Assembly: GCF_006475605.1 (NCBI RefSeq)
Contig: NZ_ML636837.1
Location: 141,468 to 205,467, forward strand
DNA from: Asticcacaulis tiandongensis
GTDB lineage: Bacteria; Pseudomonadota; Alphaproteobacteria; Caulobacterales; Caulobacteraceae
Reading direction: 5' to 3'
Length of the DNA stretch: 64,000 nucleotides
Below the pieces are notes generated by a model that searched no databases, was not told the origin of the DNA, and worked only from the letters and a program-made list of their open reading frames with translations. The position numbers were made by a program, and so were the translations under genes. Positions 41,526-42,835 of this stretch are shown here, piece by piece. Position 1 is the first letter of the stretch. The number at the start of each line of letters is the position of its first letter.

Positions 41526-41533
41526 GATGCTAT

Positions 41534-41557
41534 CATACCTCCCTGCCTTTGGCGGGG
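41534..41557. repeat. Left part of an interrupted REP-like element (copy 3)
   Basis: CATACCTCCCTGCC...GGCGGGG corresponds to the first palindrome of the element at 29862. It stops at the IS110 element. The element resumes at 42702 with GGGGGACC, as expected if the IS landed in the G-rich arm. Confidence 0.6.
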
Positions 41558-41571
41558 AGCAACCATGTGGA

Positions 41572-42519
41572 TTAGGCGTATTTGATCCAGGGTGTTTTTC
41601 GTTTGAGCACGATGTTGGCGGCTTCGATAAGCTTTCGCATGATAGCGACGATGACGACTTTTTTGGGCTTGCCGCCGTCGAGCAAGCGTTGCGCGAAGGC
41701 TTTGAAGCCTGAGTTCATGCGTTTGGCAGAGAGGGCAGCAAGATAAACGAAGGTTCTGGGCCTTGAGCGCCCGCCGGTGATGAAGCGCTTGCCGTGAAAC
41801 TGGCCGGAATCACGGTCGAATGGCGCAACCCCAAGCAGGGCCGCGGGCTTTCCAGGTGCCATGCGGCCCAGTTCCGGCATGCGGATAACCAGGCTCATGG
41901 CCGTGATATCGCCCACACCGGGCAGGCTTTTCAGGAGTTGAAACCGCGCCTTGAGGTCAGGATGTGCGCGGATCGCTTCGAGGATCAGCTGACGAAGCCG
42001 GACTTTCTGAGCCTCCAGATAGAGAATGCGCTCGCTGTCCATGGCCTTTATGACCTCAAGCCGATGGTGCTCACACAGGGTTCTGACCTGCGCCAGAAGC
42101 TGGCTGGTTTGCTCGTAGGCCGTCATAAGTTCCGCCAGATCAACCAGATACGGGTCAAACCGGGCGACAACGCCTTCATAAGCAGCCGTCGCTTTGGCGA
42201 TAAGATGCGCATCGGCCTTGTCCGACTTCAGGCGGATACGGCGATAACGCGCGAACGCCCTGACCTCCAGCGGCTGAAGCACGATGGCTTCGAAGCCGGA
42301 CGCTTCCAGCGCTTCGCGTACATCGCGCTCGTACTGGCCCGAAGCCTCCATCCCGACCCGATGGACGCCCTGATCGCGCAGCCAGACGACCATCTGCGCC
42401 AGACCTTCCGGCGTATGGTGGAACCGCTGATGATGGCTAGCTTCGCACACATCAACATCCAACCATAACTTGCCGATATCGACACCGGCCACGCCTGTGA
42501 TAGACTGTACCTGTTCCAT
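41572..42519 (-). CDS. IS110-family transposase (DEDD recombinase)
   Basis: The start at 42519 (MEQVQSITGVAGVDIGK) is chosen over a longer frame that would translate the structured upstream region. The 315-residue protein has the RuvC-like DEDD site (Asp14 in VDIGK, Glu58 in GMEASGQ, Asp100 and Asp103 in KSDKADAH). The Tnp20 domain has LPGVGDITA, LLGVAPFDRDSGQFHGKRFITGGRS (Ser238 as likely nucleophile) and a basic C-terminus. It is intact in length and active-site residues, so the element may be active. Confidence 0.95.
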   Translation of the reverse strand: MEQVQSITGVAGVDIGKLWLDVDVCEASHHQRFHHTPEGLAQMVVWLRDQGVHRVGMEASGQYERDVREALEASGFEAIVLQPLEVRAFARYRRIRLKSDKADAHLIAKATAAYEGVVARFDPYLVDLAELMTAYEQTSQLLAQVRTLCEHHRLEVIKAMDSERILYLEAQKVRLRQLILEAIRAHPDLKARFQLLKSLPGVGDITAMSLVIRMPELGRMAPGKPAALLGVAPFDRDSGQFHGKRFITGGRSRPRTFVYLAALSAKRMNSGFKAFAQRLLDGGKPKKVVIVAIMRKLIEAANIVLKRKTPWIKYA

Positions 42520-42701
42520 GATCTCAACCTTGTGTCTTCGGGCCTTAACGCCCATGCAACCATCCGAGGCAGGAACCCAATGGTGGTCAAGCTCCCCGAC
42601 AGCCCTCAAAGGCTAAGGGGGTAACGACCCTTCCAATGGACGGGATCAGCGATGGTCAGATCTCTGATCCCAACCCATCTTCTCACATATTCTACAAACA
42701 A
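42520..42701 (-). ncRNA. Putative bridge RNA region of the IS110 element
   Basis: IS110 elements encode a guide (bridge/seek) RNA in the non-coding end. Here the 182 bp upstream of the transposase gene holds an 8-bp stem GGGATCAG/CTGATCCC (42642-42649 with 42664-42671), followed on the minus strand by GC-rich internal stems. An 8-base stretch CGGGGAGC matches the other IS junction (41553-41560) in the opposite orientation, as a guide loop might. The RNA itself is inferred, not shown. Confidence 0.55.
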
Positions 42702-42835
42702 GGGGGACCGCTTTGCGCAAGCAAAGGGGTGGTGGGGTATCTTTTACAGTCAGAAAGCAAGAAACCCCATCCGTCAGCGAAACAAACGTTTCGCCGCCAC
42801 CTTCCCCATCATGAGATGGGGAAGTATGCTCCAAC
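42702..42835. repeat. Right part of interrupted REP-like element (copy 3)
   Basis: GGGGGACCGC, then GGGGTGGTGGGGTATCTT, AAGAAACCCCATCCGTCAGCG and CACCTTCCCCATCATGAGATGG follow the order of palindromes in copy 1 (29862-30035). It ends at the stop of the sialate O-acetylesterase gene. Confidence 0.6.

What the first reader, a model, noticed from the sequence alone, without database searches (positions are those of the whole stretch)
42520..42701. Likely bridge RNA of the IS110 element
The long non-coding end lies upstream of the transposase gene, as in IS110 elements that make a bridge RNA. It has a clear 8-bp stem and GC-rich internal stems, one of which carries CGGGGAGC, identical (reverse orientation) to the junction at the other IS end. 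ACCCCC in the next segment could pair with the G-rich REP target. This gives a concrete, testable RNA-guided targeting of a REP family.
Basis: partly seen in the sequence, partly recalled or inferred. Interest (0 to 1): 0.62.

Follow-up and report, generated by a model that had tools for sequence, protein, structure and literature searches.

The report
Bridge RNA of REP-targeting IS110 element
The non-coding end of this jumping gene encodes a guide RNA whose two loops match the repeat the element jumped into and the element's own ends, so it is a new and well-supported but ordinary member of the known IS110 "bridge RNA" family.

Summary
The finding is right. 42520-42701 is the left non-coding end of a complete 1,143-bp IS110-type element (transposase 42519-41572, minus strand). 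A second identical copy lies in the same genome; both sit in a palindromic REP-like repeat, with a CT core. A covariance model built from 12 relatives, without this element, hits the 64-kb window once, at 42520-42641 (-), 101.5 bits, E=5e-20. Guide parts and spacings follow IS621. The right target guide CGGGGAG pairs 7/7 with the repeat, the left target guide 6/9, the left donor guide 8/8, and the split right donor guide 6/6 (one G-U). Across 14 elements the guides follow each element's own target (0 of 100,000 permutations as good). In 41 further, mostly distant elements the right guide does the same, stopping sharply after 7 nt. Stems show compensatory changes. A decayed relative in the same genome carries different guides that fit its different target. 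RNA expression and activity were not tested. REP targeting by IS110 elements with bridge RNAs is published (IS621), so this is a new member of a known kind. The clade's pairing footprint (about 8-nt left guide, 7-nt right guide, against 9 and 4 in IS621) is a modest variation.

The parts
41558..42700 (-). Complete IS110-type element, 1143 bp (one CT core counted, at 41559-41558)
   Evidence: Two copies in the genome identical over 42717-41538 while outer flanks differ; junctions cut the repeat ..GGTCCCC|CT|CCCCGCC.., found uninterrupted 46 times in the genome
41572..42519 (-). IS110 DEDD transposase/recombinase, 315 aa
   Evidence: Pfam PF01548 and PF02371, NCBIfam NF033542 above cut-off; related to solved IS621 and ISCro4 recombinases, E about 5e-29; D14, E58, D100, D103, S238 invariant among relatives and aligned to the IS621 DEDD+S residues
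42520..42700 (-). Left non-coding end (LE) holding the bridge RNA
   Evidence: element edge and start codon
42520..42641 (-). Bridge RNA core: target-binding loop + donor-binding loop
   Evidence: Only hit in the window of covariance model R1 built without this element, 101.5 bits, E=5e-20; 3 hits in the whole genome = two copies plus decayed relative
42642..42671 (-). 5' stem-loop of the bridge RNA (8-bp stem GGGATCAG/CTGATCCC)
   Evidence: sequence; fold; position as the IS621 5' stem-loop
42616..42624 (-). Left target guide TTACCCCCT (pairs 6 of 9 with GGTCCCCCT; last two = core CT)
42592..42598 (-). Right target guide CGGGGAG (7 of 7 with CTCCCCG)
42601..42614 (-). TBL stem-loop AGCC..GGCT between the two target guides
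   Evidence: helix 3
42577..42639 (-). Target-binding loop with outer stem 42633-42639/42577-42583 and inner stem 42626-42629/42585-42588
   Evidence: helices 1 and 2, compensatory changes
42556..42563 (-). Left donor guide ATGGTTGC (8 of 8 with the element's right end ATGGTTGC|T)
42540..42553 (-). DBL stem-loop GGGC..GCCC
   Evidence: helix 5, A-U to G-C compensatory change
42529..42537 (-). Split right donor guide AG-ACA-CAAG (CAAG with CTTG; AG with donor TT, one G-U), same spacing as IS621 A157-U158/C162-G165
   Evidence: with the IS621 numbering of PMC11208158
42701..42702 (-). Core dinucleotide CT at the left junction
42703..42744 (-). 5' half of the interrupted REP-like repeat (GATACCCCACCACCCC-hairpin-CGGTCCCC)
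41530..41557 (-). 3' half of the interrupted repeat (CCCCGCCAAAGGCAGGGAGGTATGA..)

Best explanation
The segment encodes the bridge RNA of an IS110-group element. In the excised circle the joined ends bring together a promoter that spans the CT core (TTGCTT-17-GAAGAT with an upstream TG) and transcribe the left end. The RNA binds the DEDD recombinase. Its donor loop pairs with the element's own joined ends (ATGGTTG-CT-TGTTT). Its target loop pairs with one REP-like repeat family (CCCC-CT-CCCCG), so the element inserts between two hairpins of that repeat, scarlessly, at CT. Shown here: element ends, target repeat, guide matches, guide/target covariation over relatives, stem covariation, catalytic residues. 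Inferred from IS621: transcription, RNP formation, recombination chemistry.
For: Relative-trained RNA model hits only this place, E=5e-20. 24-pair two-loop structure: 96.1% of cells paired, 9 pairs with two-sided changes, 0/500 shuffles as high, slid structures much worse. Guides fit own target better than other elements' targets: 13.40 vs 10.85 of 16, 0/100,000 permutations, 14 elements. Right guide in 41 further, mostly more distant elements: 4.39 vs 2.31 of 5 non-core pairs, 0/100,000, edge at position 7. Two identical copies in the same repeat family; 46 intact copies of the site GGTCCCCCTCCCC, 0 for the reversed control. Decayed relative in the same genome with different guides and a matching different target. 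Transposase.
Against: No RNA data. The left target guide of this copy has 3 mismatches at its far end (TTA vs GGT), more than the 0-2 usual in IS621-type elements, and by itself does not discriminate from other elements' guides (6.0 vs 5.87). The -10 hexamer of the junction promoter is poor (GAAGAT). The DBL base stem has one C-A mismatch. Isolated folding is not better than shuffles.
Confidence: 0.95

Rival explanations
1. The left end is only a structured 5' leader or antisense/small regulatory RNA region that controls transposase expression, as described for ISPpu9 (sRNAs Asr9 and Ssr9), and the matches to the target are incidental.
For: The RNA abuts the start codon (42519), and an IS110-family element in P. 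putida has regulatory sRNAs at its ends (PMC8450116, abstract).
Against: Regulation does not predict guides that follow the insertion site from element to element with sharp 7-8 nt edges, nor the IS621-identical spacing of four guides.
Confidence: 0.03
2. Target choice is made by the protein, which recognises the REP hairpins; similarity between RNA and target comes from REP-derived DNA captured in the left end.
For: Several relatives insert in related repeats, and G-rich stretches are easy to match.
Against: Guides also follow targets that are not this REP family (for example TGTCCT, CTGCCCT, CTCAGTC, CTAAC), and matches are confined to two short strands in fixed structural positions rather than a longer copied stretch.
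Confidence: 0.02
3. The element is of the IS1111 type, with the guide RNA in the right end.
For: Same DEDD transposase superfamily.
Against: The right non-coding end is only 14 nt, the left 181 nt; the RNA model places the RNA upstream of the gene.
Confidence: 0

Closest known systems
IS621 of Escherichia coli (IS110 group) and its bridge RNA (PMC11208160, PMC11208158)
   Same: DEDD+Ser recombinase, long LE with bridge RNA, short RE, CT core, REP target, junction promoter across the core, GG linker + 8-nt left donor guide + AU linker, split right donor guide ending CAAG, RNA order 5' stem-loop/TBL/DBL.
   Different: About 29% protein similarity level only; other guides; target is a Caulobacteraceae REP-like repeat; natural right target guide pairs over 7 nt (IS621: 4, extendable to 7); left target guide pairs over about 8 nt in the clade and 6 in this copy (IS621: 9).
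ISCro4 (PDB 9t56)
   Same: Same recombinase family, best PDB sequence match, E=4.5e-29.
   Different: Distant; its RNA was not compared here.
ISPpu9 / ISPpu10 of Pseudomonas putida
   Same: IS110-family elements; ISPpu9 sits in REP sequences (PMC8450116); ISPpu10 bridge RNA predicted in PMC11208160.
   Different: Different host and repeat; not compared in sequence here.
IS1111-group elements with seekRNA (PMC11187229)
   Same: Related DEDD transposase and guide RNA principle.
   Different: IS1111 elements carry a long right end and subterminal inverted repeats; here the long end is the left one.

Membership tests
IS110 group element | Transposase with DEDD RuvC-like N domain (PF01548) and C domain with conserved Ser (PF02371) | tested here: met
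IS110 group element | Long left end upstream of the gene, short right end | tested here: met
   181 nt versus 14 nt
IS110 group element | Scarless insertion at a short core in a specific target | tested here: met
   CT core; repeat split cleanly in both copies; 46 intact sites
IS110 bridge RNA | 5' stem-loop followed by target-binding and donor-binding internal loops | tested here: met
   covariance model hit, pair counts
IS110 bridge RNA | Target loop guides complementary to both strands of the target including the core | tested here: met
   RTG 7/7; LTG 6/9 with 3 distal mismatches; covariation in the clade
IS110 bridge RNA | Donor loop guides complementary to the joined element ends, right donor guide discontiguous | tested here: met
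   LDG 8/8, RDG 6/6 with one G-U (rule)
IS110 bridge RNA | Promoter reconstituted at the RE-LE junction | tested here: inconclusive
   TTGCTT-17-TAGxxT-like in most relatives; window copy has weak GAAGAT with TG
IS110 bridge RNA | RNA is transcribed and binds the recombinase; recombination is programmable | not testable with these tools
   needs RNA-seq and assays
REP (repetitive extragenic palindrome) | Repeated, palindromic, outside genes | tested here: inconclusive
   46 exact core sites with hairpins; 8 of 12 sites checked lie outside any ORF of 150 aa or more, 4 overlap mechanical ORFs; no RAYT-type Y1 transposase in the genome

The most novel reading that the evidence does not exclude
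In this alphaproteobacterial branch of IS110 the target pairing is re-partitioned: right guide 7 nt as the rule, left guide about 7-8 nt, so the right guide carries much of the specificity and elements such as this one tolerate mismatches at the far end of the left guide.
Probability: 0.55. Interest if true: 0.4.

Novelty: new member of a known kind. Interest (0 to 1): 0.3.

Why it matters
It gives a concrete bridge RNA with predicted target and donor guides in an Asticcacaulis-type (Caulobacteraceae) genome, and a family of relatives whose guides and targets co-vary, useful for choosing new programmable recombinases. The sharp 7-nt right-guide footprint in 41 divergent elements sharpens a point that the IS621 work left as an extension seen in some orthologues. 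It also shows again that IS110 elements use abundant palindromic repeats as safe landing sites.

Tried and rejected
Rfam 15 at gathering thresholds found only two tRNAs in the window, no bridge RNA family. Single-sequence folding gave no significance, so structure was judged by covariation. The search for related loci with the single protein found nothing; an alignment query found 80 loci. The exact full guide footprint ACCCCCTCCCCG does not occur anywhere in the genome, so the guides do not match any REP perfectly; CCCCCTCCCCG occurs 21 times, 17 of them in GGTCCCCCTCCCC sites. RAYT transposase for mobilising the REPs: none found. Virus collections: only two distant IS110 hits. Left ends of the 41 extra elements were not located, because the only signal (CTTG) is too short to place them without using the guide itself.

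Full report
What is there. The window holds a complete IS110-type insertion sequence on the minus strand: transposase 42519-41572 (315 aa), element 42700-41558 (1,143 bp). A second copy lies about 119 kb away in the same genome; the two are identical over 1,180 bp (42717-41538), including flanking repeat sequence, and then diverge.

Target. Both copies split the same repeat..GATACCCCACCACCCC-hairpin-CGGTCCCC|CT|CCCCGCCAAAGGCAGGGAGGTATGA... Uninterrupted copies are common: GGTCCCCCTCCCC occurs 46 times exactly in the 3.2-Mb genome and its reversed control never. The core is CT. 'REP-like' is used because the extragenic position was checked for only 12 sites, 8 of them clear of any ORF of 150 aa or more, and no REP-associated Y1 transposase was found.

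Transposase. Pfam DEDD_Tnp_IS110 and Transposase_20, NCBIfam 'IS110 family RNA-guided transposase' above cut-off. The best solved structures are ISCro4 and IS621 (E about 5e-29). D14, E58, D100, D103 and S238 are invariant in relatives and align with the IS621 catalytic residues named in PMC11208158.

RNA anatomy. Read in transposase sense: 5' stem-loop GGGATCAG..CTGATCCC; target-binding loop with stem CCATTGG/CCATTGG (one U-U), inner stem GGTC/GACC, left target guide TTACCCCCT, stem-loop AGCC..GGCT, GU linker, right target guide CGGGGAG; donor-binding loop with GG linker, left donor guide ATGGTTGC, AU linker, stem-loop GGGC..GCCC, and split right donor guide AG-ACA-CAAG. The linkers and spacings are those described for IS621 in PMC11208158. 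Pairing in this copy: RTG 7/7, LTG 6/9, LDG 8/8, RDG 6/6 including one G-U.

Structural test. On 13 aligned left ends, the two-loop structure (24 pairs) is formed in 96.1% of cells, 9 pairs show changes on both sides (25 cells), and none of 500 shuffles reached these values; structures slid by 1-3 columns pair in 24-59% of cells. The structure was drawn by me from these sequences, so the percentage paired is partly circular; the two-sided changes are the stronger evidence. A covariance model built from 12 relatives without the window element hits the window once, at 42520-42641 (-), 101.5 bits, E=5e-20. In the whole genome it hits three places: the two copies and a decayed relative. It also hits 63 of the places just upstream of the transposase in 67 further records, which include L089 and four close relatives; the rest are divergent alphaproteobacterial relatives.

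Guide/target test. For 14 elements with definable ends, the target guides fit the element's own target (mean 13.40 of 16) better than the targets of others (10.85); none of 100,000 permutations did as well; left and right guides are each significant alone. By position, the left guide follows the target at -4 to -8 and stops at -9; the right guide at +3 to +6 and stops at +7 (where two left guides were shifted one nt by hand; excluding them and duplicates gives the same edges). As further data, 41 elements, most of them more distant, whose right ends were located from the left donor guide only show right guides matching 4.39 of 5 non-core positions versus 2.31 when permuted, 0 of 100,000, again with an edge at +7. 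Permutations ignore relatedness of the elements.

For the window element alone. The right guide discriminates (7.0 versus 5.29 for other guides), the left does not (6.0 versus 5.87); its three distal positions mismatch the repeat. The perfect footprint ACCCCCTCCCCG is absent from the genome. So the left guide may have been acquired against a slightly different repeat, or the distal left positions are not read. In other elements inserted in GGTCCCCCT repeats (G003, G191, G272, G143) the two outermost left-guide positions also do not match GG.

Decayed relative. In the same genome (C16:162946-164718, L089) an IS110 relative with a stop in its frame has left guide TTGCCACCT and right guide GGGGGAG next to target ..TGCCATCT|CCCCCG..: different guides, different target, matching.

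Expression. The joined ends give TTGCTT, 17 nt, then TAGAGT-like hexamers in most relatives, spanning the core; in the window copy the second hexamer is GAAGAT with a TG before it. This fits the junction promoter reported for IS110 circles (PMC11208160) but is weak and untested.

Known or new. IS110 elements, bridge RNAs, CT core and REP targeting are all published (PMC11208160, PMC11208158). This element is a new member. The longer right guide was reported for some orthologues; here it appears to be the rule in a branch. The nearest relatives are in Asticcacaulis solisilvae, Caulobacter and Phenylobacterium, so the window is from an Asticcacaulis-type genome (same genus group as the A. solisilvae genome).

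Noticed in passing
L089 (G000:C16:162946-164718): Decayed IS110 relative in the same genome with its own bridge RNA (78.1 bits), different guides and a different matching target.
   Followed up: partly
genome-wide, e.g. L006-L025: Family of palindromic repeats GATACCCCACCACCCC-hairpin-CGGTCCCCCTCCCC-hairpin, 46 exact core copies, and a second form ending GCCACCCTCCCCGCC; no RAYT-type Y1 transposase found that could spread them.
   Followed up: partly
G242 and G292 elements (L077-L079, L045): Left target guide appears shifted by one nucleotide, using the usual spacer base before the TBL stem-loop.
   Followed up: no
G017 C15/C18, G098 C1/C4/C11 contig ends (L029, L030, L035-L037, L039): Relatives of this IS lie exactly at contig ends, so draft assemblies break on it and copy numbers are underestimated.
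   Followed up: no
L181, L169, L170, L176, L186 (Rhodobacteraceae): A sub-branch with left donor guide ACGGATAC where the right guide fits the target less well (3.5-6.5 of 7); perhaps looser targeting.
   Followed up: no
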